From Bordetella genomosp. 5 (lineage in GTDB: Bacteria; Pseudomonadota; Gammaproteobacteria; Burkholderiales; Burkholderiaceae_B): 64,000 nucleotides of DNA. The translations under genes and the position numbers were made by a program. The DNA lies in assembly GCF_002261475.1 (NCBI RefSeq), contig NZ_NEVN01000012.1:1-64000 (forward strand). The letters are read 5' to 3'. The notes under the pieces are model-generated. The model was not told where the DNA came from and searched no databases. It worked only from the letters and a program-made list of their open reading frames with translations. Of this stretch, positions 14,399 through 25,901 are shown one piece after another (positions within the stretch are counted from its first letter, which is position 1; every line of letters begins with the position of its first letter).

Positions 14399-15202
14399 TC
14401 AGTAGACGCCCGCCGCGCCACTGGTGGCCGCACGTCCATGACGTGCCGCCAGATCGGTTGCCGCGCGCGCCAGCAACGTCGCGTCCACGCCCACGGCCGT
14501 GAACACGCTGCCGCGTGCGATGTAGTGTTCTGCCAGGACCGGATCGCTCACCAGGATTCCGGCCGCCTTGCCGTGGCTGCGGATACGCGCCAGCGCCGCA
14601 TCGATCACGGTCTGCATCGCGGGATCGGCCGGCCGGCCGCGATAGCCGTAATCCGCGGCCAGGTCGGCCGGGCCGATGAAGACGCCGTCCACGCCGTCGA
14701 CGGCGCAGATCGCGTCGAGAGCCTCGATGCCGCGGCGCGTCTCGACCTGCACGAGGGTGCACATGGTGTCGTTGGCCTCGTCCAGATAGGCAGGCAGGCG
14801 ATTCCAGCGCGAGGCTCGCGCCAGCGCGCTGCCCACGCCACGAATGCCTTCGGGCGGATAACGCATGGCGGCCACTGCCGCCGCGGCCTCCTCGGCACTC
14901 TGGATCATCGGCACGAGCAGCGTGCGCGCGCCGACGTCCAGCAAACGCTTGATCTCGACGGGATCGTTCCAGGCGGGCCGCACGACGGGCTCGACCGGGT
15001 AGGCCGCCAACACCTGCAACTGCGCGAGGATCGAATCGAGCGTGTTGGGTGCATGTTCGCCATCGATCAGCAGCCAGTCGAAGCCGGCGCCGGCCACGAC
15101 CTCGGTGGCATACCCACTGGCCAGGCCCAGCCACAGGCCCACTTGAGAGTCGCCGCGCGCCAGCGCCGCCTTGAACGCATTCGGAGGGGTTTTCATGGTC
15201 AT
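14399..15202 (-). CDS. HpcH/HpaI-family class II aldolase
   Basis: The 267-residue product matches 4-hydroxy-2-oxoheptane-1,7-dioate aldolase (HpaI) and relatives, which split 4-hydroxy-2-oxo acids to pyruvate plus an aldehyde. Seen blocks include [14 protein letters not shown], the catalytic [19 protein letters not shown], metal-ligand glutamate in [13 protein letters not shown] and aspartate in [14 protein letters not shown]. It starts at ATG 15202, sharing a base with the stop of the hydratase gene (TGATG), or at ATG 15196. Next to an HpaH-like hydratase it plausibly gives the last step of a ring-cleavage pathway. Confidence 0.9.
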
Positions 15203-16008
15203 CACTCGAAGCGGCAGCTCACGGCGCCCAGGGTGCCGTAGTCGACGTGGAACACATCGCCGCGCTCCGCATACACGGGTCGCGTGAACGAGCCGCTCAG
15301 CACGATCTGATCGCGTTCGAGGGCAACGTCGTGCTCGGCCAGGCGATTCGCGAGCCACACCACACCGTTCGCGGGATGGTTCAGCACGCCCGCCGCCAGG
15401 CCGGTTTCTTCGATGACGGCATTGCGCGACAGGATCGCGCCGACCCAGCGCAGATCGAGTTCGTTGACGCGCACCGGGCGCCCGCCCATCACCACGCCGG
15501 CATTCGCGGCGTTGTCGGCGATCGTGTCGAACACCTTGCGCGGGCGACGCGAGTCGGGATCGATCTGGTGCGATCGGGCATCGATGATTTCCAGTGCCGG
15601 AATCACATAGCGCACCGCGTCCAGCACGTCGAAGAGCGTGACGCCGGGACCGCGCAGCGGCTTGTCGATAATGAACGCGAGCTCCACCTCGAGGCGCGGC
15701 ACGATGAAACGATCACGCGCGATGGACGCGCCATCGGCGAACAGCATGTCGTCGAGCAGCGCGCCGAAGTCGGGCTCGTCGATCTGCGACGACAGCTGCA
15801 TGGCGCGCGAGGTCAGGCCGATCTTGTGGCCGACCAGACGCCGGCCCTCCGCCAGCTTGAGGTCGACCCAGCGGCGCTGAACGGCATAGCCATCGGCGAT
15901 GTCCATGTCGGGATGGTCGAGCGAAACCTGACGGATCTGGGTGCGCGTGCGCTCTGCCTCATGCAGGCGGCGTGCGATGTCTTCGATGATAGGAGCGGCT
16001 AGAGCCAT
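15202..16008 (-). CDS. 2-oxo-hepta-4-ene-1,7-dioate hydratase-like (HpaH/MhpD family)
   Basis: The 268-residue product belongs to the 2-keto-4-pentenoate hydratase family, most like HpaH (267 residues). Motifs include [25 protein letters not shown], the metal-binding [24 protein letters not shown] and [13 protein letters not shown]. It adds water to a 2-oxo-4-enoate before aldol cleavage. It lies directly between the SnoaL-like gene and the HpaI-like aldolase. The usual HpaH substrate comes from homoprotocatechuate, but the other genes here do not include a homoprotocatechuate dioxygenase, so the true substrate may differ. Confidence 0.9.
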
Positions 16009-16034
16009 GAAAGACCTCGAGAGTTTGGTAGGTG

Positions 16035-16463
16035 TCAGTGCGTGGCGGGTTCGGGCGGCAGATGGCGCCGGCTGGTCTTCTGCGCCAGCCGCCACCCCGC
16101 CAGCGTCTCGATCCACTCGTCGGTGCAGGACCGGATCGACACGAGACGCGGCGTGGCGTCCGCGCCGGGCGCCGTACGGCTTTCGTAGGCGAGCAGGTAG
16201 AACTGCACGCGCACCCGCCCCTCCTGCGCCGGCTCTGCTTGCAGGTTGGTCACGATGTGTGCGGTTTCGCGCGCCGGATCGCGTTCGGCCAATGCGGCGG
16301 CCACGGCCTGGGGGCCGACCAGTGCCTGCCCCTGCCGGTGCCAGACACCGTCGGCGGCCATCAGCGCGGCAACCTCGTCGTGGCGGCGCTGGTCCAGCGC
16401 GCTGAAGAACGCCAACACATGGCGGCAGGCGGCGTCGCGGTGCGAGAGAGAAGAATCGTTCAT
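16035..16463 (-). CDS. SnoaL/NTF2-like fold protein
   Basis: The 142-residue protein has the cone-shaped NTF2-like pattern: HVLAFFSALDQRRHDEVAALMAADGVWHRQGQALVGPQAVAAAL, then two strands ending in CTDEWIETLAGWRLAQKTSR. The family includes beta subunits of ring hydroxylases and small isomerases. Its ATG (16463) overlaps the reductase stop by ATGA, so it is co-translated with the oxygenase electron chain. It is distinct from the beta subunit encoded at 19342-19833, so it is a second NTF2-fold protein in the operon with unknown function. Confidence 0.75.
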   Translation of the reverse strand: MNDSSLSHRDAACRHVLAFFSALDQRRHDEVAALMAADGVWHRQGQALVGPQAVAAALAERDPARETAHIVTNLQAEPAQEGRVRVQFYLLAYESRTAPGADATPRLVSIRSCTDEWIETLAGWRLAQKTSRRHLPPEPATH

Positions 16464-17710
16464 GCGGCAAGCTCCGGGTTGCGCGGCGCGAGTGGCGCCA
16501 CCGCGTCAGGCGCGTCAATGCAGTCTTCATAATCCGCGGGGGCCGCGGCACCTTGCTCCACGAGCTTGCGCGCAACGCGGAAGTCACGGCCGGCATCGAT
16601 GCCGACGGCGGCCACCACCGCGCCGGCCGCGTCCAGGCCGAGGTAGAGACGACCGGTGGCTCCCGCAGGACGCATGACGGTCCGGCGCGCCAGCGCAGGA
16701 AAGCCCGCGATCTGGATCATGTGCTCGTATTGCTCGGACCACACCAGCGGCACGGGTGCATAGCTGACCGGCTCGCCCAGCATGGCGCGTGCGGCGGCGG
16801 CGCCCTGGTCCTGGGCGTTCTGCCACGACTCGAGCCGCAGCCCTTCGGGCACACGGGGATGGGCCAGCACGGCGACGTCGCCCGCCGCATAGATATGCGG
16901 ATCGGAGCTGCGACAGGTGGCGTCGACGAGCACCCCGCGCGCGCACGCGAGCCCGGCCTCGCGCGCCAGGTCATCGTTGGGTTGCATGCCCACGCCCAGC
17001 AACACGAGATCGGCGGGCACCTGCGTGCCGTCGGCCAGCCGGACCCGCCCGCCCTGTGCATCTTCTTCGAGCGCCGTGACGCCCTGGCCGATGCGCACGG
17101 TCACCCCGGCCGCCTCGTGGCGGTCGAGCAGAAACGCCGACACGGGGGCCATGACGCTGCGCGCGCAGAAGCGCGGCGCGGCCTCGATCACCGTCACGGT
17201 GCACCCCAGCGTGCGTGCGGTGGCGGCGAGCTCCAGCCCGATCCAGCCGCCACCGATGATGACGAGGCGGGGCTGGCTGGCCAGCGCCGCGCGCAGCGCC
17301 AGCGCATCGTCGAGCGTGCGCAGGGTCCGCACCCGCGCGCTGTCGAACCCCGGCAACGGCGGGCGGCATGGGCTGCCGCCGGTGGCCAGCAGCAGCTTGT
17401 CATAGCCGATCGCGGCGCCATCGGCGAACCGCAATTCGCGCGCCGCTGCGTCCAGCGCGACGGCGGCGCGCCCGGCCAGAAATTCGACGTCGAGGGCCTG
17501 CATGTCCGCCATGCTGAGCAGCGTGGTCCCGGCGGCCTCGGTCGCGCCCGTGATCAGGCCCTTGGACAGGGGCGGTCGTTCGTAAGGCGCATGCGCCTCG
17601 GCGCCGCACAACACGATGCGGCCGGCATGACCGCCATCGCGCAAGGTGCGCGCGGCCCAGGCGCCGGCCTGCCCCGCGCCCACGATCACGAAAGTACCGG
17701 CGGCTTTCAT
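16460..17710 (-). CDS. Ferredoxin reductase component of a Rieske oxygenase
   Basis: The 416-residue protein is a glutathione-reductase-type FAD/NAD(P)H ferredoxin reductase like AndAa or BphA4. It has FAD-binding FVIVGAGQAGAWAARTLRDGG at the N-terminus, a second Rossmann motif LVIIGGGWIGLELAATARTLG (about residue 150), and the IYAAGDVAV FAD-contact motif. It passes electrons from NADH to the adjacent Rieske ferredoxin. The ATG at 17710 overlaps the ferredoxin stop by ATGA. NagAa-type reductases have a different fold, so the electron chain resembles three-component dioxygenases. Confidence 0.92.
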   Translation of the reverse strand: MKAAGTFVIVGAGQAGAWAARTLRDGGHAGRIVLCGAEAHAPYERPPLSKGLITGATEAAGTTLLSMADMQALDVEFLAGRAAVALDAAARELRFADGAAIGYDKLLLATGGSPCRPPLPGFDSARVRTLRTLDDALALRAALASQPRLVIIGGGWIGLELAATARTLGCTVTVIEAAPRFCARSVMAPVSAFLLDRHEAAGVTVRIGQGVTALEEDAQGGRVRLADGTQVPADLVLLGVGMQPNDDLAREAGLACARGVLVDATCRSSDPHIYAAGDVAVLAHPRVPEGLRLESWQNAQDQGAAAARAMLGEPVSYAPVPLVWSEQYEHMIQIAGFPALARRTVMRPAGATGRLYLGLDAAGAVVAAVGIDAGRDFRVARKLVEQGAAAPADYEDCIDAPDAVAPLAPRNPELAA

Positions 17711-18036
17711 GCCTCGTCGGCCCGCAGATACACCGTGCCCTCTTCCACGCGGATTTCGTAGCAGCGCAGATCGGTGGTGACGGGAGGGCACTGCGGCTTG
17801 CCGGTGGCGATGTCGAACACCCCCTGATGCAGCGGGCACTCGATCGTGCCGTCTTCGACCCAACCTTCGGCGAGGCTGGCATTGCCGTGCGGACACTTGT
17901 CCTGCGTGGCACAGACCTGCCCATCGAGCTCATACAGGCACACGGCCTCGCCCTCGTGCATCACGCGCAGCGTGTGCGTGTCGGGCGAAATGTCCTTGAC
18001 CAGTGCCACCGGTTTCCAGATAGCGGTATCCATCAT
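17707..18036 (-). CDS. Rieske [2Fe-2S] ferredoxin
   Basis: The 109-residue product carries the Rieske cluster motif CPHGNASL and ECPLHQGVFD (CxH ... CxxH) and has the size of ferredoxin components of ring-hydroxylating dioxygenases. It shuttles electrons from the reductase to the oxygenase. It starts at ATG 18036 (a second ATG follows directly), two bases after the alpha-subunit stop, and its own stop overlaps the reductase start, so the genes are tightly coupled. Confidence 0.93.
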   Translation of the reverse strand: MMDTAIWKPVALVKDISPDTHTLRVMHEGEAVCLYELDGQVCATQDKCPHGNASLAEGWVEDGTIECPLHQGVFDIATGKPQCPPVTTDLRCYEIRVEEGTVYLRADEA

Positions 18037-18038
18037 GA

Positions 18039-19328
18039 TCAGAACCCCATCGCCTCGCGGTAATACTGATAGAACGAACGGATCAGCACCTCGGTCACCA
18101 TGTAGTCGGCCGGCTCGGTGTCGCGTCCGCCCATCTCGACGATGCCGCGCGCGCCGGGGTAGCCGGTCACGCCGATCTGGCACTGCGTGAGCATCTCGCT
18201 GTCGTCCATCGAGACAAAGCCCGCCGGGCCCAACAGGTTGGCGTGCTTCAGGCGCAGCCGCGTCATCTCTTCGTCATCGTCTTCGTAGCCGTAGTACGTG
18301 AAGACGAGCTCGTGCTCGGTGGGGCTGCGCGGAATCACGTGGCGGGTCTTGAGCGAGTTCGCCTGGATGCCGAACTGCGCGGCGGGAAAAACCCATGCGC
18401 CGCCGACGCGGCCGCGGTTGAACTCGGCCCGCGGCGTAACCGTTTCCAGGTCCAGCAGCTCGAGGTCGTTACGGAACCGGCTCATCTCCGAGGTGGCTTC
18501 GGTGACCTTCTTGCCTTCGTTGTGCGACACCATCACGCTGTGCGCGCCGCCGCCGGTCGGAATGCACTCCGACTTGGAGTCGGCACGCCACAGGCCAAAG
18601 GTGATGTAGAAGGTGTGCAGCAGCGTGGCGTGGTACGGATCCTTCAGGTTCTCGAGGTACATCTTCCAGTTGCTGGGAATCAGCTGACGGCTATAGCCCA
18701 GCAGCTTGAGCTTCTTGCCCGGCAACATGTGATCGATTTCCGCCAGCACCTCGGGGCCGCAGAAATCCTCGAAGCTCGGCGCCTCGTCGGAGAACGTGGC
18801 CCAGATCGAGCCGCCGCGATTCACGCTGCGCAGCTTGCGGATGCCGTTCTGCTTAGGGTCGAAATCGCGCGGCATGCCGCCCTTGCCCATCGCGCCGCGG
18901 CGAAACGGCACGCCTTGCAGATTGCCGTTGAGGTCATAGTTCCACTGGTGATAGGGGCAGGTGAAGTCCGCGACCTTGCCGGTGTTCTGCCAGCAGATCT
19001 GCGCGCCGCGGTGGGCACAGCGGTTTTCGAGCACGGCGATCTCGCCGCTCTCGGTGCGCACCATGATCACCGGACTGGTGCCGATCCAGTTGCGCTTGTA
19101 GCAGCCCACCTCGGGCACTTCGCATTCCAGACCCACGTAGTTCCAGGTCTTGCCATTGAAGAAGATATCCATCTCCTTCTGGAACACGGCGGGATCGGTA
19201 TAGACCCAATTCGGAATCCGGGTATGGCCCTCCTGGGGCCAGCGCCGTTCGATGTGGATGGGCTGTTCCGCGCGCGCCTCGGCGTGATCGGTACAGGCGT
19301 GCTGGGCGTCGTTGTGTGTGCAGGTCAT
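18039..19328 (-). CDS. Aromatic-ring hydroxylating oxygenase alpha subunit (NagG/AndAc-like)
   Basis: The 429-residue protein has an N-terminal Rieske domain (C104-A-H106 and C124-P-Y-H127) and a C-terminal catalytic domain. The mononuclear iron ligands are probably H233 and H238 in LENLKDPYHATLLH, with D230 as the bridging aspartate and an acidic ligand in GPAGFVSMDDSEM. Much of the wording (WNYVGLE, CPYHQWNY, LQGVPFRRG, HTFYITFGLWRADSKS, VEMGG) follows salicylate 5-hydroxylase NagG and anthranilate dioxygenase AndAc. The substrate is therefore likely an ortho-substituted benzoate, which is inference. ATG 19328 is preferred to 19385. Confidence 0.93.
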   Translation of the reverse strand: MTCTHNDAQHACTDHAEARAEQPIHIERRWPQEGHTRIPNWVYTDPAVFQKEMDIFFNGKTWNYVGLECEVPEVGCYKRNWIGTSPVIMVRTESGEIAVLENRCAHRGAQICWQNTGKVADFTCPYHQWNYDLNGNLQGVPFRRGAMGKGGMPRDFDPKQNGIRKLRSVNRGGSIWATFSDEAPSFEDFCGPEVLAEIDHMLPGKKLKLLGYSRQLIPSNWKMYLENLKDPYHATLLHTFYITFGLWRADSKSECIPTGGGAHSVMVSHNEGKKVTEATSEMSRFRNDLELLDLETVTPRAEFNRGRVGGAWVFPAAQFGIQANSLKTRHVIPRSPTEHELVFTYYGYEDDDEEMTRLRLKHANLLGPAGFVSMDDSEMLTQCQIGVTGYPGARGIVEMGGRDTEPADYMVTEVLIRSFYQYYREAMGF

Positions 19329-19341
19329 GGCGATTCCGGAA

Positions 19342-19833
19342 TCAAACGGGCACGATGAGCGAAGTGCGCACCCGGTAGTTGTCATAGACGCAGTCGCGGT
19401 GCGCGAGGCGCCAGCCGGCGTCGGTTTCGCGCCAGGTGTCGAGATAGCGGCCGACCATGTTCAGGCTCGGCTCGCGATCGGACAGCGATTCCATGATGGC
19501 GAAGTTGGCCTGCGCCCGGACCTCGTTGCCCGCGCGTTCGCGCACCATCACGCCACTGATGAAGTGGCGCAGCGAGCGCGGCTCGAACATCGTGGTTTCG
19601 CGCAACGCGGTGACACGGTCCTTGAGCATGTTCTTGTTCATGCAATAGATGAGGCCGAGCGGCAGGCCGGCATCATGGTTTTCGCGCGATAAGACGCGGT
19701 AGTGGCAGTCTTCGGTAAAGAAGGCAGGCCAGGCTTCGAGGTCGCCCTCGTCCAGGCAGTGCCCGTAGTCTTCGTACAGATCGCGCAGTTCGGCGCGCAG
19801 CGCGCGGGCGCGGAGATCGTCGGCGTTCGGCAT
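19342..19833 (-). CDS. Aromatic-ring hydroxylating oxygenase beta subunit
   Basis: The 163-residue protein has the NTF2-like fold of small subunits: LYEDYGHCLDEGDLEAWPAFFTEDCHYRVLSREN near the N-terminus, MLKDRVTALRETTMFEPRSLRHFISG in the middle, and the C-terminal strand pair VGRYLDTWRETDAGWRLAHRDCVYDNYRV. It resembles NagH/AndAd and pairs with the alpha subunit encoded 13 bases downstream. It is structural and has no cofactor. Confidence 0.92.
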   Translation of the reverse strand: MPNADDLRARALRAELRDLYEDYGHCLDEGDLEAWPAFFTEDCHYRVLSRENHDAGLPLGLIYCMNKNMLKDRVTALRETTMFEPRSLRHFISGVMVRERAGNEVRAQANFAIMESLSDREPSLNMVGRYLDTWRETDAGWRLAHRDCVYDNYRVRTSLIVPV

Positions 19834-21012: not shown

Positions 21013-22017
21013 TCAATGCGCCAGCAACAGGTTTTCCCGGGTTTGCGGGGCGAGCTTCACGCCCAGGTCGCGCTCGCGGGCGGCCTCGTAGACCACGCGC
21101 GCCAGCGCGAGGTCGGACAGTCCCATGCCCATGCCCTTGAAGAGCGTCATGCGAGCCCCCTCGGGGCGGTGATGGACGCCGCCTTGCGCAAGCAGGTCCG
21201 ACAGCACGGTGACGCCGGTCCAGGGCTCGGGGCCGGTGCCGAAGCGCTCGCGCAATTCGCGCGAGCCGCGCCGGGCGTTCTCGATGTCGTCGACCGCCAC
21301 GAGATCCGCGCGCTCGAACACATCTGGCATGAACTCCGCGCGTGCCGGCAGGATGGCGCCGACGGCGTTGAGGTGCAGGCAGTCGCGCAGTTGCGACGCG
21401 CCCACGAAAGGAGACTCCGCACGGGTGATCAGGGTCACGATGTCGGCCCCCTCCAGCGCGGCGTCCAGGCTGCCGGCGGCGTCGACCTCGAAGTCGTATC
21501 GCTCACGCGCCTGGCGCACGAATGCCTCGCGCTTCTCGGGCGTGGGGCTGAACACACGCACCGTCTGGGGCGAGCGAACGGCGGCGAGTGCGGCCAGTTG
21601 CGTGACCGCCTGCGGCCCCGTGCCGATGAGCGCCGCATGACGCGAAGTCGCGGGTGCCAGCAGGCGCGTGGCCAGACCGGTGATGGCAGCCGTGCGCAAC
21701 ATGCCCAGTGCGCGCGCTTCGATCACGGCGAGCAGCGTGCCGCGGGTCGCATCGAACAGAGTGAACACAGACCCGCCGCCCTGCTTGGTATGTACCCAGG
21801 TCTTGAAGCCGCAGAGCCCGCCCTCGCCCGTCATCACGGAGCCGAGCGCATGCATCGAACTGCCTTCGCCCCACGTGGCGAGCGCCTTGGGCACGTTGTG
21901 GGCCTGCCCCAGGCCTTGCTGCGTCAGGGTGTCGGCCAGGGCGTCGATCGCGCGCGGCATGTCCAGCACGCCCACCACGTCGGCCTCGGAGAGATATCGC
22001 ATCGCCGGGTTCATCAT
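21013..22017 (-). CDS. Ornithine cyclodeaminase/mu-crystallin family protein
   Basis: The 334-residue product has the OCD/mu-crystallin fold: substrate-side GFKTWVH, the RTAAITGLATRLLA block and an NAD(P) Rossmann motif ALIGTGPQAVTQLAAL (about residues 128-143), then LHLNAVGA and FKGMGMGLSDLALA. Members are cyclodeaminases or NAD(P)H-dependent imine/ketimine reductases. Its presence in a ring-degradation operon hints at a nitrogen-containing intermediate, which is speculation. The ATG overlaps the stop of the upstream FAA hydrolase gene (ATGA), so the two are co-translated. Confidence 0.87.
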   Translation of the reverse strand: MMNPAMRYLSEADVVGVLDMPRAIDALADTLTQQGLGQAHNVPKALATWGEGSSMHALGSVMTGEGGLCGFKTWVHTKQGGGSVFTLFDATRGTLLAVIEARALGMLRTAAITGLATRLLAPATSRHAALIGTGPQAVTQLAALAAVRSPQTVRVFSPTPEKREAFVRQARERYDFEVDAAGSLDAALEGADIVTLITRAESPFVGASQLRDCLHLNAVGAILPARAEFMPDVFERADLVAVDDIENARRGSRELRERFGTGPEPWTGVTVLSDLLAQGGVHHRPEGARMTLFKGMGMGLSDLALARVVYEAARERDLGVKLAPQTRENLLLAH

Positions 22018-22868
22018 TGCTCCTCCCGCCGCGGCGGTTCATCCATGACGGCGTGGCTGAGTCGGCCCACGCCGGTGATATCGACCTCGAACACATCGCC
22101 GTCGCGCAGGAACCGCGGCGGCTGGCGCGTGGCGCCCACGCCTTCGGGCGTGCCCGTGGCGATCACGTCGCCGGGTGCCAGGGCGGTAAAGCTGCTGATG
22201 TAGGCGATCAGCGCCGGGATCGAGAAGATCAGGTCGGAGACGCTACCGTCCTGCATCGGCTCGCCATTGAGGAACGAGCGCACGCGCAGGCGGGTGGGGT
22301 CGGCGATCTCGTCGGCCGTGACGAGCCACGGGCCGAGCGCGCCGGAGCGTTCGAAGTTCTTGCCCGGCGTGACCTGCGCGCTGTGTTTTTGAAAGTCGCG
22401 CACGGAGTTTTCGGCCATACAGGTGTAGGCGCCAACATGCGACATCGCATCGCGCTCGGCGATGTGCCGGCCGCCCCGTCCGATCACGACGGCGAGTTCG
22501 GCCTCGAAATCGAGTCGCTCCGAGACGTGCGGCCGCCAGGCCGCCGCGCCATGTCCGACGAAGCTGTCCGCATAGCGCGGGAAGATCGACGGGTGAGCAG
22601 GCAGCTCACGCCCGGCTTCGCGCACATGCTTGCCGTAGTTCAGGCCCACGCACAGGATCTTGCTACAGGACTCGACCGGCGGCAGCCATGCCAGGTCGGC
22701 GATTGCCAATGTCGGCGCGGGAGCGCGGGCGGCTTCGGCCAGGGCCTCGTGCCCCGCCCCGAGTGCGCTCGCCAGATCGGGCCAACGGTCCGTCATCAAG
22801 CGGATCTCGTCGCCTTCGCGTATGCCCCAGGCAGGCTTGCCTTCGAGCAAGAAGCGCTGAAGCTTCAT
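22014..22868 (-). CDS. Fumarylacetoacetate hydrolase family protein
   Basis: The 284-residue protein has a short N-terminal domain and the FAH beta-roll: ILCVGLNYGKHVREAG, FPRYADSFVGHG, the metal-binding LDFEAELAVVIGRGGRHI, VTPGKNFERSGALGPWLVTADEI and the C-terminal APGDVIATGTPEGVG. Members hydrolyse acylpyruvates (for example fumarylpyruvate in the gentisate pathway) or act on related 2-oxo acids. It is the first gene of the minus-strand aromatic operon, with its promoter in the operator-rich gap before the GntR gene. ATG 22868 follows the family start MKLQRF. Confidence 0.9.
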   Translation of the reverse strand: MKLQRFLLEGKPAWGIREGDEIRLMTDRWPDLASALGAGHEALAEAARAPAPTLAIADLAWLPPVESCSKILCVGLNYGKHVREAGRELPAHPSIFPRYADSFVGHGAAAWRPHVSERLDFEAELAVVIGRGGRHIAERDAMSHVGAYTCMAENSVRDFQKHSAQVTPGKNFERSGALGPWLVTADEIADPTRLRVRSFLNGEPMQDGSVSDLIFSIPALIAYISSFTALAPGDVIATGTPEGVGATRQPPRFLRDGDVFEVDITGVGRLSHAVMDEPPRREEQ

Positions 22869-22926: not shown

Positions 22927-22938
22927 ATTGCATGCAAT
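22927..22938. promoter_or_regulatory. Palindromic operator copy 1 (ATTGCATGCAAT)
   Basis: This is the first of three identical 12-bp perfect palindromes in the divergent promoter gap between the FAA hydrolase gene and the GntR gene. It lies about 60 bp upstream of the catabolic operon start. Perfect short palindromes of this type are typical half-turn binding sites of FCD-type GntR dimers. Confidence 0.8.
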
Positions 22939-22978
22939 GCCGTCGCTGTTTTGTGCTTTCCGGCTATTTTTCCGCAGT

Positions 22979-22990
22979 ATTGCATGCAAT
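22979..22990. promoter_or_regulatory. Palindromic operator copy 2 (ATTGCATGCAAT)
   Basis: This is the second identical palindrome, 52 bp from copy 1, which equals about five helical turns and places the sites on the same face of the DNA. A G follows the palindrome in all three copies (ATTGCATGCAATG). Confidence 0.8.
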
Positions 22991-23031
22991 GGAAGCGTCG
23001 CGCAAGCAAATTTGGCGGCCAAAGCGGTCTC

Positions 23032-23043
23032 ATTGCATGCAAT
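23032..23043. promoter_or_regulatory. Palindromic operator copy 3 (ATTGCATGCAAT)
   Basis: This is the third identical palindrome, 53 bp from copy 2 and about 40 bp upstream of the GntR start codon, a position suited to autorepression. Confidence 0.8.
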
Positions 23044-23083
23044 GGCGGGCTACACTAACGAGGCAAAAAGAACCGGACCCACC

Positions 23084-23842
23084 ATGGCTGCCCAAATCGA
23101 CAAAGTGATCTCAGAGCTACGCGACATGATTCTGTCGGGCGAGCTCGCGCCCGGCGAACGTGTCGTGGAACTGCAGTTTTCGGCCCGCCTGGGCGTGTCG
23201 CGCACGCCGCTGCGTATCGCACTGACCGAGCTGGAAAAAGAAGGCTTGGTCGAGCGCCTGCCGTCCCGCGGATTCCGGGTGCGTGCCTTTACGGTGGACG
23301 AAATCGGCGACGCCGTTGAAGTGCGCGGCGTGCTCGAGGGCCTGGCGGCGCGCCTGCTGGCCGAGCGCGGCGCCTCACCCGAGGTGCTGACGCAATTGAC
23401 CGAGACCGTGGCCGAGGGCCGCAGCCTGCTTGCACCGGCCGAACGCGATCCGAATGTGCTGGTGGATGCGAGAGCCTGGGGCAGGATCAACCAGCGCTTT
23501 CACGAGATCCTGTGCCAGGCGGCGGGCAATCGGGCGCTCTTGTCGGTGCTCGAACACAACAACAAAACGCCGTTGGCCGGCCCTGCCGCGCTGACCTTGC
23601 CCTCGACGCCCTCGGTGCTCGAGACGCCCTATGTGCTGCGGGCCCAGGCCGACCATGAAGACCTGTTGCGCGCCATCATGCGGCGCGAGTCCAGCCGTGC
23701 GGAGAGCCTGATGCGCGAGCACGCCTATCGCAGCCGCGAAAACAAGCGCGTGATGCTCGAGTCGATCAAGACGGGCCGGCACGGCCTGGCGCTGGCAGCG
23801 GTGCCCGCACCGACACCCACCGAAGAAGCCGCGGCGAGCTGA
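23084..23842 (+). CDS. GntR-family regulator (FCD/VanR subfamily)
   Basis: The 252-residue product has a winged HTH at the N-terminus (IDKVISELRDMILSGELAPGERVVE, ARLGVSRTPLRIALTELEKEGLVERLPSRGFRV) and a helical FCD domain with NQRFHEILCQAAGN. The motif R-x-E-L-E-x-x-A-A in the domain linker (EVRGVLEGLAARLLAERGA) is typical. It is transcribed divergently from the aromatic operon, and three identical palindromes fill the gap between them, so it most likely controls both directions. ATG 23084 is chosen because the HTH begins directly after it. Confidence 0.92.
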   Translation: MAAQIDKVISELRDMILSGELAPGERVVELQFSARLGVSRTPLRIALTELEKEGLVERLPSRGFRVRAFTVDEIGDAVEVRGVLEGLAARLLAERGASPEVLTQLTETVAEGRSLLAPAERDPNVLVDARAWGRINQRFHEILCQAAGNRALLSVLEHNNKTPLAGPAALTLPSTPSVLETPYVLRAQADHEDLLRAIMRRESSRAESLMREHAYRSRENKRVMLESIKTGRHGLALAAVPAPTPTEEAAAS

Positions 23843-23890: not shown

Positions 23891-24775
23891 TCAGATCCCG
23901 AACGATGCCACCCAGCCGCGGAACGTGTCGAGCTCTTTCGAACGGTGCTGGTAATCGGTGTCGGGCAGCACGAAGTAGTAGCTCACGTCGCCCAGGTCCA
24001 CACACAGATCGAACGGCGCCACGAGCTTGCCTTCGGCGAGTTCCTTTTCCACCAAAGGTTTTTGCGCGATGGCGACGCCGTAGCCGGCCAGCGCGGCCTC
24101 GTAGGCGAGTGCCGACGATTCGTATTGCAGGCCATGCGACACGTCCACGCGTGTCGCGCCGGCGGCGCGCAGCCAGATCTCCCAGTAATCGGGCCGGGCC
24201 AGCGTGTGCAGCAGCACCTCGTTCATCAGGTCGCGCGGCTTACGCAGGCGCGCCGCCTTCTCGGGCGTGCAGACAGGCGTGAGCTCGTTGACCATCACCT
24301 TGTAGCTCTTCCAGCCTTTCCAGCGGCCATCGCCCAGGCAGATCGCCGCATCCACGGCCTCGGACTTGAAGTCGGGCGGCGCCACCGACGTGTGCAGCTT
24401 GACGTCGACACCCGGAAAACGACGATGGAAGCTCGACAGGCGCGGCAGCAGCCAGCGCATGGCGATGCTGTGCGGCGCCTTGATCACGAAGGGGCGACGG
24501 CGCTTGAGCGATGCGGTCAACGCCGTGCTGGCGCGATGCAGGCCGGCGAAGTGCTGCGCGACCTCGTCGTGATAGGCGCGGCCGGCATCGGTGAGCACGA
24601 TGCGGCGGTGCTGGCGCTCGAACAGCCGGGTGCCGAAATGCTGCTCGAGCTGCCGGATCTGACGGCTCACGGCAGCCGGCGTCACGCACAGCTCGGCGGC
24701 GGCCTCGGTGACGCTGCCCAGTCTGCCCACCACGTCGAAGCAGCGCAGGGCATTGAGTGGAGGTAAGGAATCCAT
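23891..24775 (-). CDS. LysR-family regulator (GcvA-like)
   Basis: The 294-residue product has the LysR N-terminal HTH (LNALRCFDVVGRLGSVTEAAAELCVTPAAVSRQIRQLEQHFGTRLFERQHRRIVLT) and a substrate-binding effector domain. The opening MDSLPPLNALRCFD is typical of the GcvA-like branch. It is divergent from the Bug/amidase operon with a 121-bp gap and is the likely regulator of that operon. Its stop faces the GntR gene end at 48 bp. Confidence 0.92.
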   Translation of the reverse strand: MDSLPPLNALRCFDVVGRLGSVTEAAAELCVTPAAVSRQIRQLEQHFGTRLFERQHRRIVLTDAGRAYHDEVAQHFAGLHRASTALTASLKRRRPFVIKAPHSIAMRWLLPRLSSFHRRFPGVDVKLHTSVAPPDFKSEAVDAAICLGDGRWKGWKSYKVMVNELTPVCTPEKAARLRKPRDLMNEVLLHTLARPDYWEIWLRAAGATRVDVSHGLQYESSALAYEAALAGYGVAIAQKPLVEKELAEGKLVAPFDLCVDLGDVSYYFVLPDTDYQHRSKELDTFRGWVASFGI

Positions 24776-24896
24776 GGCGCAACTCGCTTAACAAAAACTC
24801 AACTGAATGACGATGGAAATTGCTTGAGCCGGCGCTTGCGGCGTCCCACTATCCCCGTACCGCCGTGCCAGGCGGAAGACAAAAAGGGGAAGTGCC

Positions 24897-25901
24897 ATGT
24901 TCACGATCATTACCCGGCAGCTCAGGGTCGCTTCGGTATTGCTGGCGACCAGTCTGAGTCTATTCCAAACCACGCCCGCGGCAGCCGCTGGCGCCGTTGG
25001 GGGCTTCCCGGATAAGCCGGTCAGCATCATCGTGCCCACGACGCCGGGCGGCACGGCCGACATCCTCGCCCGCCTCATCGGCCCCAAGCTGGCCGAGAAG
25101 TGGAAGCAGCCCGTGGTGGTCGAGAACAAACCCGGAGCCGGCACCCTGATTGGGTCCGAATTTGTGGCGCGCGCCAAGCCCGATGGCTACACGCTGATGC
25201 TGAGTTTCAACGAGCTGGCCACGCTGCCCGCGCTCAACAAGGACGTGAAGCTCAACGTCGACTCGCTCACGCGCGTGGGCCAGATCGGCAGCCTGCCGGT
25301 GCTGGTGCTCACCAACCCCAAGATCACGTCGAACAATCTGCAGGAATTGATCGCGCTCTTCAAGGCCAATCCCGGCAAGTACACATACTCGTCGAACGGC
25401 GCGGGCTCGTCGCTGCAGCTCTTCACCGAGCTGTTCAAGCGCGAGGCGGGCGTGGACGTGCTGCACATCCCGTATCGCGGCGCGCTCGAGGCCTCGATGG
25501 CGGCGATCGCCGGCGAGGTCGATCTGCTGGTGCAGTTCGCCTCGGGCAACGTGCTCAATCACGTGAAGGCCGGCAAGCTGAAGGCCTATGCGGTGGCATC
25601 CGACAAGCGCCTGGAGGGGCTGCCGGACGTGCCGACCGCCGCCGAGGCCGGCCTGCCGGGCCTGCGCCTGCAAGCCTGGTACGGGCTGTTCGCGCCGGCC
25701 GGCACGCCCGACGCGCTGGTGCAGAAGATCAATAAAGACCTCAACGATGCCCTGGCCCTGCCCGACATTCAGGAACGCCTGAAGGGCATCAACCTGCAGC
25801 CCACACCCAGCACGCCCGCCGACTTCGATCGCTTCTTCCGCGCGGAGTCCGAGCGCTGGGCCGCGCTGATCAAGGCCGCGGGCATCCAGAGCAACCAATG
25901 A
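24897..25901 (+). CDS. Bug-family periplasmic binding protein (TTT receptor)
   Basis: The 334-residue product has a signal peptide (hydrophobic core VLLATSLSLFQTTPAAAA) and the Bug fold with VSIIVPTTPGGTADILARLIG, VENKPGAGTLIGSEFVARAKPDGYTLM, DVLHIPYRGALEASMAAIAGEVD and DVPTAAEAGLPGL. It overlaps the amidase gene by ATGA, so it and the amidase form one translational unit. That pairing suggests that it binds an amide or a related acid, by inference. Confidence 0.93.
   Translation: MFTIITRQLRVASVLLATSLSLFQTTPAAAAGAVGGFPDKPVSIIVPTTPGGTADILARLIGPKLAEKWKQPVVVENKPGAGTLIGSEFVARAKPDGYTLMLSFNELATLPALNKDVKLNVDSLTRVGQIGSLPVLVLTNPKITSNNLQELIALFKANPGKYTYSSNGAGSSLQLFTELFKREAGVDVLHIPYRGALEASMAAIAGEVDLLVQFASGNVLNHVKAGKLKAYAVASDKRLEGLPDVPTAAEAGLPGLRLQAWYGLFAPAGTPDALVQKINKDLNDALALPDIQERLKGINLQPTPSTPADFDRFFRAESERWAALIKAAGIQSNQ

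What the first reader, a model, noticed from the sequence alone, without database searches (positions are those of the whole stretch)
22927..23043. Three perfect, helically phased copies of a 12-bp palindrome between a GntR gene and an aromatic operon
ATTGCATGCAAT occurs three times at 22927, 22979 and 23032, each followed by G. Spacings of 52 and 53 bp are about five helical turns, so all sites lie on one face of the helix. They fill the promoter gap between the FAA-hydrolase-led operon and its divergent FCD-type GntR regulator. The array suggests cooperative or looping control by one dimeric regulator on both promoters.
Basis: partly seen in the sequence, partly recalled or inferred. Interest (0 to 1): 0.75.

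Follow-up and report, generated by a model that had tools for sequence, protein, structure and literature searches.

The report
Phased triple operator for a GntR repressor
Three identical 12-letter DNA words sit about five helix turns apart between a regulator gene and the aromatic-degradation genes it probably switches, and relatives keep near whole-turn spacing, which suggests one regulator grips several sites at once.

Summary
ATTGCATGCAAT occurs three times in the 215-bp gap and nowhere else in the 5.2-Mb genome. All 22 orthologous loci used keep three sites 51-53 bp apart, while the DNA between them diverges. In 268 family genomes, paired sites occur in 51 and the reversed control in none. 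All 37 genomes (the window's own included) with a regulator orthologue of at least 66% identity carry the pair; the 14 other array genomes have a 28-60% identical GntR gene beside it. Spacings mostly fall near whole turns (about 31, 41, 52, 62-64, 73, 95 bp); 76, 50 and 55 bp are exceptions. The nearest solved structure is Atu1419, a zinc-binding tetrameric GntR repressor that loops DNA; its zinc ligands and main DNA-contact residues are conserved here. Best reading: an autoregulated repressor, probably tetrameric, bridging in-phase operators over two divergent promoters. Binding, repression, looping and inducer are inferred. A well-supported new variant of a known kind.

The parts
22927..22938 (.). 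operator site 1, ATTGCATGCAAT; would lie in the 5' leader of the catabolic operon if the promoter proposed at site 2 is right
   Evidence: exact copy; TGCATGCA core kept in 22 of 22 orthologous loci
22979..22990 (.). operator site 2, ATTGCATGCAAT; overlaps the inferred catabolic promoter
   Evidence: exact copy; all 12 bases unchanged in 22 of 22 orthologous loci
23032..23043 (.). operator site 3, ATTGCATGCAAT; 7 bp before TACACT, the inferred -10 of the regulator gene
   Evidence: exact copy; core kept in 22 of 22 orthologous loci
22976..23005 (-). possible catabolic promoter: TTGCGC, 18 nt, AATACT (many relatives TTGCGA and AATAAT), with site 2 in its spacer and -10
   Evidence: read from the sequence and the alignment; the consensus scan found no promoter at its threshold, so this is inference
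23051..23056 (+). possible -10 box TACACT of the regulator gene
   Evidence: TACACT after site 3 in 19 of 20 non-redundant relatives, by reading (position); no good -35; not found by the scan
23084..23842 (+). FCD-type (VanR-like) GntR regulator, 252 aa
   Evidence: PF00392 and PF07729; nearest solved structure 6z74, Atu1419, E 1.2e-36
22014..22868 (-). FAA-hydrolase family enzyme, first gene of the divergent operon
   Evidence: PF01557; NCBIfam hits all below cut-off
21013..22017 (-). ornithine cyclodeaminase/mu-crystallin family protein
   Evidence: PF02423
19859..21016 (-). cupin protein, probably a ring-cleavage dioxygenase of the gentisate dioxygenase kind
   Evidence: Pfam cupin; partial matches to gentisate dioxygenases in PDB
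18039..19833 (-). Rieske oxygenase alpha (18039-19331) and beta (19342-19833) subunits
   Evidence: Pfam; nearest PDB chain salicylate 5-hydroxylase 7c8z, E 7e-118; AndAc and AndAd models hit below cut-off
16460..18054 (-). Rieske ferredoxin (17707-18054) and ferredoxin reductase (16460-17713)
   Evidence: Pfam; NCBIfam hits below cut-off
14399..16463 (-). SnoaL-like protein, HpaH-type hydratase, HpaI-type aldolase
   Evidence: SnoaL in Pfam; HpaH and HpaI pass NCBIfam cut-offs

Best explanation
The three palindromes are operators of the adjacent VanR-like FCD GntR protein. One dimer is thought to bind each palindrome. The regulator, probably a dimer of dimers as in Atu1419, holds two in-phase operators at once, or neighbouring dimers touch along one face of the helix. 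Site 2 covers the catabolic promoter, site 3 the regulator's own promoter, and site 1 lies in the catabolic leader as a roadblock or alternative loop partner. Without inducer both promoters are shut; an effector, from the aromatic pathway or another metabolite, releases the protein. Shown here: the sites, their conservation, the spacing rule and the co-occurrence with the regulator. Inferred: binding, tetramer, repression, promoter positions, loop and inducer.
For: The only copies in the genome are these three. In 22 of 22 orthologous loci three sites remain 51-53 bp apart. In 20 non-redundant relatives, sites are 96% identical pairwise, spacers 51% and 54%, flanks 37% and 45%. In the family scan 51 of 268 genomes match, reversed control 0 of 268. 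37 of 37 genomes with an orthologue of at least 66% identity (own genome included) have the pair; the other 14 array genomes each have a GntR relative of 28-60% beside it. Spacings from 10 regulator groups: R = 0.85 at 10.5 bp, P about 1e-5; 17 of 19 spacings within 2 bp of whole turns. Arg40, Thr41, Arg44, Glu29 and Asn136, His140, His191, His213, invariant in 10 aligned sequences, line up with Atu1419 R45, T46, R49, E34 and zinc ligands N137, H141, H192, H214. Atu1419 palindromes also overlap -10 boxes and lie between -10 and -35 of its own gene, and EM shows a tetramer looping sites 190 bp apart. A VanR-like GntR was footprinted on two TTGCATGCA copies.
Against: No binding, expression or oligomer data exist for this protein. 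The promoter scan found none in the gap at its threshold. Ms0535, with the same core, is an activator, so the sign is not certain. Atu1419 also binds a single palindrome alone. Spacings of 76 bp (G120, G231), 50 bp (G081) and 55 bp (G185) miss whole turns by about 2.5 bp. R peaks at a period of 10.8 bp (0.88), where the mean phase is not zero. A 52-bp loop is very short. Spacings are partly inherited, so the P values overstate independence; with 7 spacing classes P is 0.005, or 4e-4 for the whole-turn statistic. Of 13 regulator matches of 39-44% identity I looked at 7: none has a TGCATGCA pair, and three have other paired palindromes 139 or 176 bp apart, so the rule does not hold for the wider family.
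Confidence: 0.78

Rival explanations
1. Independent dimers: each palindrome binds one dimer for its own promoter, without contact between them; the fixed spacing reflects the distance between the two divergent promoters.
For: Sites 2 and 3 each lie at an inferred core promoter. Suvorova et al. describe divergons in which each of two sites controls its own operon (PMC4494728, section read). Atu1419 binds one palindrome without the other. AlkR is described as a dimer on one palindrome, although its ITC with one fragment suggested a tetramer (passages).
Against: Site 1 has no promoter that I could see, yet keeps 51-53 bp. Spacing does not grow with the gap: the 302-bp gap of L036 keeps 52 and 52. 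Other regulator groups use spacings about whole turns longer or shorter.
Confidence: 0.2
2. The regulator is an activator: bound operators recruit or position RNA polymerase, and the array acts as an activating region.
For: Ms0535, a VanR-like GntR with the same core, activates its own operon (PMC4609117, passages). The regulator promoter shows no good -35.
Against: Sites 2 and 3 overlap inferred core promoter regions; Atu1419 with similar placement represses.
Confidence: 0.12
3. The palindromes are bound by another protein (a global or nucleoid factor), and the GntR is only a neighbour.
For: A separate set of TGCATGCA palindromes in this genome lies beside a TetR-family gene, so the core need not mean GntR.
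Against: Array presence follows the regulator gene genome by genome (37 of 37), and arrays beside 28-60% identical relatives recur in other gene contexts. The four pairs without a GntR match in the 7 kb fetched (L091-L094) have spacings 21, 14, 34 and 58.
Confidence: 0.04

Closest known systems
Atu1419 of Agrobacterium fabrum (PDB 6z74, 6za0, 6za3, 6za7, 6zab; PMC7797058)
   Same: Nearest solved relative by sequence (E 1.2e-36); VanR-group FCD GntR; short perfect palindromes at the promoters of its own gene and a catabolic gene; conserved zinc ligands and main DNA-contact residues.
   Different: Its palindrome is ATGTATACAT, with two sites 190 bp apart and another before atu1420; here TTGCATGCAA, three sites 52-53 bp apart. 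Gly66 of its wing aligns with Ser here. The oligomeric state here is unknown.
Ms0535 of Mycobacterium smegmatis (PMC4609117)
   Same: VanR-like GntR footprinted on two TTGCATGCA copies upstream of its own gene (passages).
   Different: The copies start 12 bp apart; permease operon; reported activator; not compared with the present protein by sequence.
AphS/BphS GntR repressors of phenol and biphenyl degradation (PMC6449761)
   Same: GntR-family repressors of aromatic operons with multiple palindromes, taken to imply cooperative binding (passages).
   Different: Motif AAATmTCGAkATTT; not compared by sequence here.
FadR-subfamily divergons with double sites (PMC4494728)
   Same: One class has nearly constant inter-site distance and is read as cooperative control of both operons (section).
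   Different: Three evenly phased sites are not mentioned in the sections read (5, 10, 14, 17); the general consensus is TKGT/ACMA, here TTGC/GCAA.
BusR (GntR family, PMC8517857)
   Same: Tetramer reading two boxes on one face of the helix at fixed distance; +5 and -10 bp abolish binding (passages).
   Different: Its own subfamily with another effector domain, 22-bp separation, no loop seen.

Membership tests
GntR family, FCD subfamily regulator | GntR winged helix plus FCD effector domain | tested here: met
   PF00392 59.9 bits and PF07729 62.8 bits, both above cut-off
GntR family, FCD subfamily regulator | operator signature with GT and AC half-sites (TKGT/ACMA) | tested here: not met
   Operators read TTGC/GCAA: outer TTG/CAA fits, the inner T/A is C/G. 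This is a common consensus rather than a strict rule; Ms0535 was footprinted on the same core.
VanR group of FCD regulators | no extra helix after the linker | not testable with these tools
metal-binding FCD regulators | Asn/Asp plus three His ligands | tested here: met
   N136, H140, H191, H213 invariant in 10 aligned sequences and aligned to Atu1419 N137, H141, H192, H214; metal itself not tested
tetrameric looping GntR (Atu1419-like) | tetramer in solution; one tetramer bridging two palindromes | not testable with these tools
   No biochemical data; phased operators are compatible
cooperative multi-site divergon | inter-site distance constant and independent of gap length | tested here: met
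   51-53 bp in 23 rows (window and 22 loci) with gaps of 190-302 bp

The most novel reading that the evidence does not exclude
A spacing code for a clade of tetrameric GntR repressors: operators recur at whole turns, most often five, because DNA is wound round the protein. 52 bp is about 17.7 nm of DNA, and Atu1419's two DNA sites are about 10 nm apart, so sites at opposite ends of a 10-nm particle would be joined by a half-circle of roughly this length; three sites would then give a nearly full wrap that closes both divergent promoters together. The arithmetic is mine.
Probability: 0.15. Interest if true: 0.7.

Novelty: new variant of a known kind. Interest (0 to 1): 0.5.

Why it matters
The Atu1419 paper states that GntR regulators had been described as dimers and shows looping for one tetramer with sites 190 bp apart. 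Here nature supplies many divergons with spacings near 3, 4, 5, 6 and 7 turns for related regulators. They can go straight into reporter and footprint assays to test how such a GntR reads helical phase, and they assign likely operators to unstudied catabolic operons in this bacterial family.

Tried and rejected
A hairpin in the leader between sites 1 and 2 looked possible in some relatives; alignment folding of 19 non-redundant spacers gave no consensus structure (its shuffled control is uninformative because nothing folded there either). Regulon elsewhere in the genome: none of the eight single-mismatch sites lies within 9 kb of a match to the regulator. Paired palindromes as a general trait of FCD paralogues in this genome: of 28 matches one search printed 25 (L115, L119, L120 gave no row); none of the 24 others has a pair by my criteria, and four have a single TTG-type palindrome (ATTGGATCCAAT, TTGGTATACCAA, ATTGTGCACAAT, TTTGTATGCAAT). 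Chance: reversed control 0 of 268; one genome (G093) has a control match. Rest of the order: 5 of 399 genomes match, 3 of them family members; the 2 others (G331, G420) have no GntR match in the 7 kb fetched. Longer and shorter spacings: 4 and 3 of 268 genomes. A plasmid search found 30 records, none with one place covering 80% of the query; of the 20 listed all match the region of the regulator gene; not used further. The catabolic substrate was not resolved.

Rows dropped: L039 (28% hit). My duplicate filter also removed G081 (spacings 50, 52) by mistake, so lack it. A 190-bp spacing at L070 was left out of the phase test by a 100-bp limit. Loci of one genome fetched from two collections (L016-L037 and L040-L066) overlap, so the 52 rows are not 52 species. 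The range 25-100 bp for random spacings and the 60% grouping were my choices. One search added six values by hand; they count sites with up to two mismatches, and two weaker sites of G226 (three and four mismatches) on their TGCATGCA core.

Literature: searches, 68 of the open PMC library; the lists are capped (10 of 1,929 papers, 30 of 952), so absence is only as good as that. In what was listed I saw no paper on this regulator or operon in Achromobacter or Bordetella. Seen beyond listings: PMC4494728 (abstract, sections 5, 10, 14, 17), PMC7797058 (abstract, sections 23, 25, passages), and passages of PMC4609117, PMC12042122, PMC8517857 and PMC6449761. Subscription papers are not held.

Full report
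Observation. The 12-mer ATTGCATGCAAT is present at 22927, 22979 and 23032. The genome holds no other exact copy (0.03 expected at window base composition). The 215-bp gap lies between an FAA-hydrolase gene on the minus strand and an FCD GntR gene on the plus strand.

Conservation. A protein search of reference genomes gave 24 loci; I used 23. In all 22 loci L016-L037 (Achromobacter, Bordetella, Candidimonas) the same gap carries three TGCATGCA-cored palindromes 51-53 bp apart. The FAA, cyclodeaminase-like and cupin genes follow in all 22, and the Rieske oxygenase genes in 21 (L034 ends before them). L038 (Piscinibacter, 53% identical) has two sites 64 bp apart, and none of the ten operon genes was found there. 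Of 43 rows with 52/52 spacing, 20 are non-redundant; in these, sites are 96% identical pairwise, spacers 51% and 54%, outer flanks 37% and 45%. In 16 of the 17 Achromobacter loci a further, half-conserved GCATGC core lies 21-22 bp beyond site 1.

Family-wide test. TTGCATGCA pairs with 25-55 bp between them occur in 51 of 268 family genomes; the reversed pattern in 0 of 268. A regulator match of at least 66% identity occurs in 37 genomes (own genome included), all 37 with a pair. The other 14 array genomes have a relative of 28-60% identity with the array within 450 bp upstream. Six relatives of 50-59% identity (G128, G209, G210, G231, G196, G226) whose own gene the strict pattern had missed have related sites upstream: spacings 31; 52 and 30; 52 and 30; 76 and 31; 52; and, in G226, sites near -152, -100 and -48, two of them weak. 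Of 13 matches of 39-44% identity I fetched 7: none has a TGCATGCA pair; L159 and L163 have TTGTATACAA twice, 139 bp apart, and L161 has CTGGATCCAG twice, 176 bp apart. Three still more distant ones (28-31%: L071, L077, L085) do have TGCATGCA pairs 62-63 bp apart.

Helical phase. Ten regulator groups gave 13 spacing values; at 10.5 bp per turn the Rayleigh R is 0.85 (P about 1e-5) with mean phase near zero; R is highest at 10.8 bp (0.88) with a phase of about -0.2 turn. With only 7 spacing classes P is 0.005, or 4e-4 for the whole-turn statistic. With six values added, 17 of 19 lie within 2 bp of whole turns; the two exceptions are 76 bp. G081 (50 bp) and G185 (55 bp) are further deviations inside the main group. 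Four pairs without a GntR match nearby had spacings 14, 21, 34 and 58. In the tree of 33 regulators, 52-bp and 62-64-bp arrays are interspersed, which hints at more than one change of about a turn, but several joins are weak or join long branches.

Partner genes differ among array classes: FAA hydrolase (L070), DRL-type oxidoreductase (L071, L085), TctC receptor (L074), solute-binding protein (L033, second array), FAD oxidoreductase (L087); the genes tested at L082, L086 and L088 had no Pfam match. The array thus goes with the regulator and not with one enzyme set.

Regulator. The nearest solved structure is 6z74, Atu1419. R31, E34, R45, T46 and R49 of its DNA contacts and all four zinc ligands are conserved. 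Atu1419 is a tetramer whose two dimers each hold a palindrome about 10 nm apart; EM showed loops on a fragment with sites 190 bp apart, and it represses; it can also bind a single palindrome. I could not model the present protein.

Promoters. On the minus strand, TTGCGC (23005-23000), 18 nt and AATACT (22981-22976) bracket site 2; many relatives read TTGCGA and AATAAT. On the plus strand TACACT (23051-23056) follows site 3 and is present in 19 of 20 non-redundant relatives, by reading. The consensus scan found neither at its threshold, so both are proposals.

Mechanism. Most likely the protein represses both promoters by occupying sites 2 and 3, with site 1 adding a roadblock or loop partner, and releases DNA on binding an effector. 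The spacing rule says that relative orientation round the helix matters, which a bridging tetramer or touching neighbours would explain. Independent dimers would not explain why site 1 is held in register.

Pathway. The operon encodes a Rieske oxygenase related to salicylate 5-hydroxylase and AndA anthranilate dioxygenase, a cupin with partial matches to gentisate dioxygenases, and HpaH/HpaI-type lower-pathway enzymes that pass their cut-offs. The substrate is probably a hydroxy- or aminobenzoate; this is inference.

Novelty. Multiple palindromes for GntR repressors of aromatic operons, fixed double sites and a looping GntR are known. What I did not find in the capped listings of my searches is this evenly phased triple array, its spacing rule over a regulator clade, or any study of this regulator.

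Noticed in passing
L010:1410-1632 (genome G000 contig C11, near 202,740-202,960): Three related palindromes (AAGTGCATGCACTT, AAGTGCATGCAATT, AATTGCATGCAGTT; core spacings 89 and 116 bp) beside a TetR-family gene, apparently an unrelated regulator using a similar core.
   Followed up: partly
L098 (-123), L099 (-128), L116 (-124), L118 (-116), upstream of the GntR genes: Single palindromes ATTGGATCCAAT, TTGGTATACCAA, ATTGTGCACAAT and TTTGTATGCAAT at similar distances before four other GntR genes of the same genome, possibly their own operators.
   Followed up: no
L032 15811-15884, L033 15829-15902, L034 8516-8589: Three Bordetella loci carry a second array with 62-bp spacing beside a paralogous GntR (about 49% identical); at L033 the partner is a solute-binding protein gene. 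Two regulators with the same core may cross-talk.
   Followed up: partly
L159 and L163, -182 and -43: More distant regulators (40%) have two TTGTATACAA palindromes 139 bp apart, hinting at where the operator sequence changed in the family.
   Followed up: no
window 23891-25901: A LysR-type regulator (23891-24775, minus) and a TctC-type receptor (24897-25901, plus) lie next to the GntR gene; relation to the operon unknown.
   Followed up: no
G088 (same genus as the window), L017 and L073: The contig of G088 has the same length (1,158,282) as the Bordetella genomosp. 12 contig of L017, so the window probably comes from a Bordetella-like Alcaligenaceae species.
   Followed up: no
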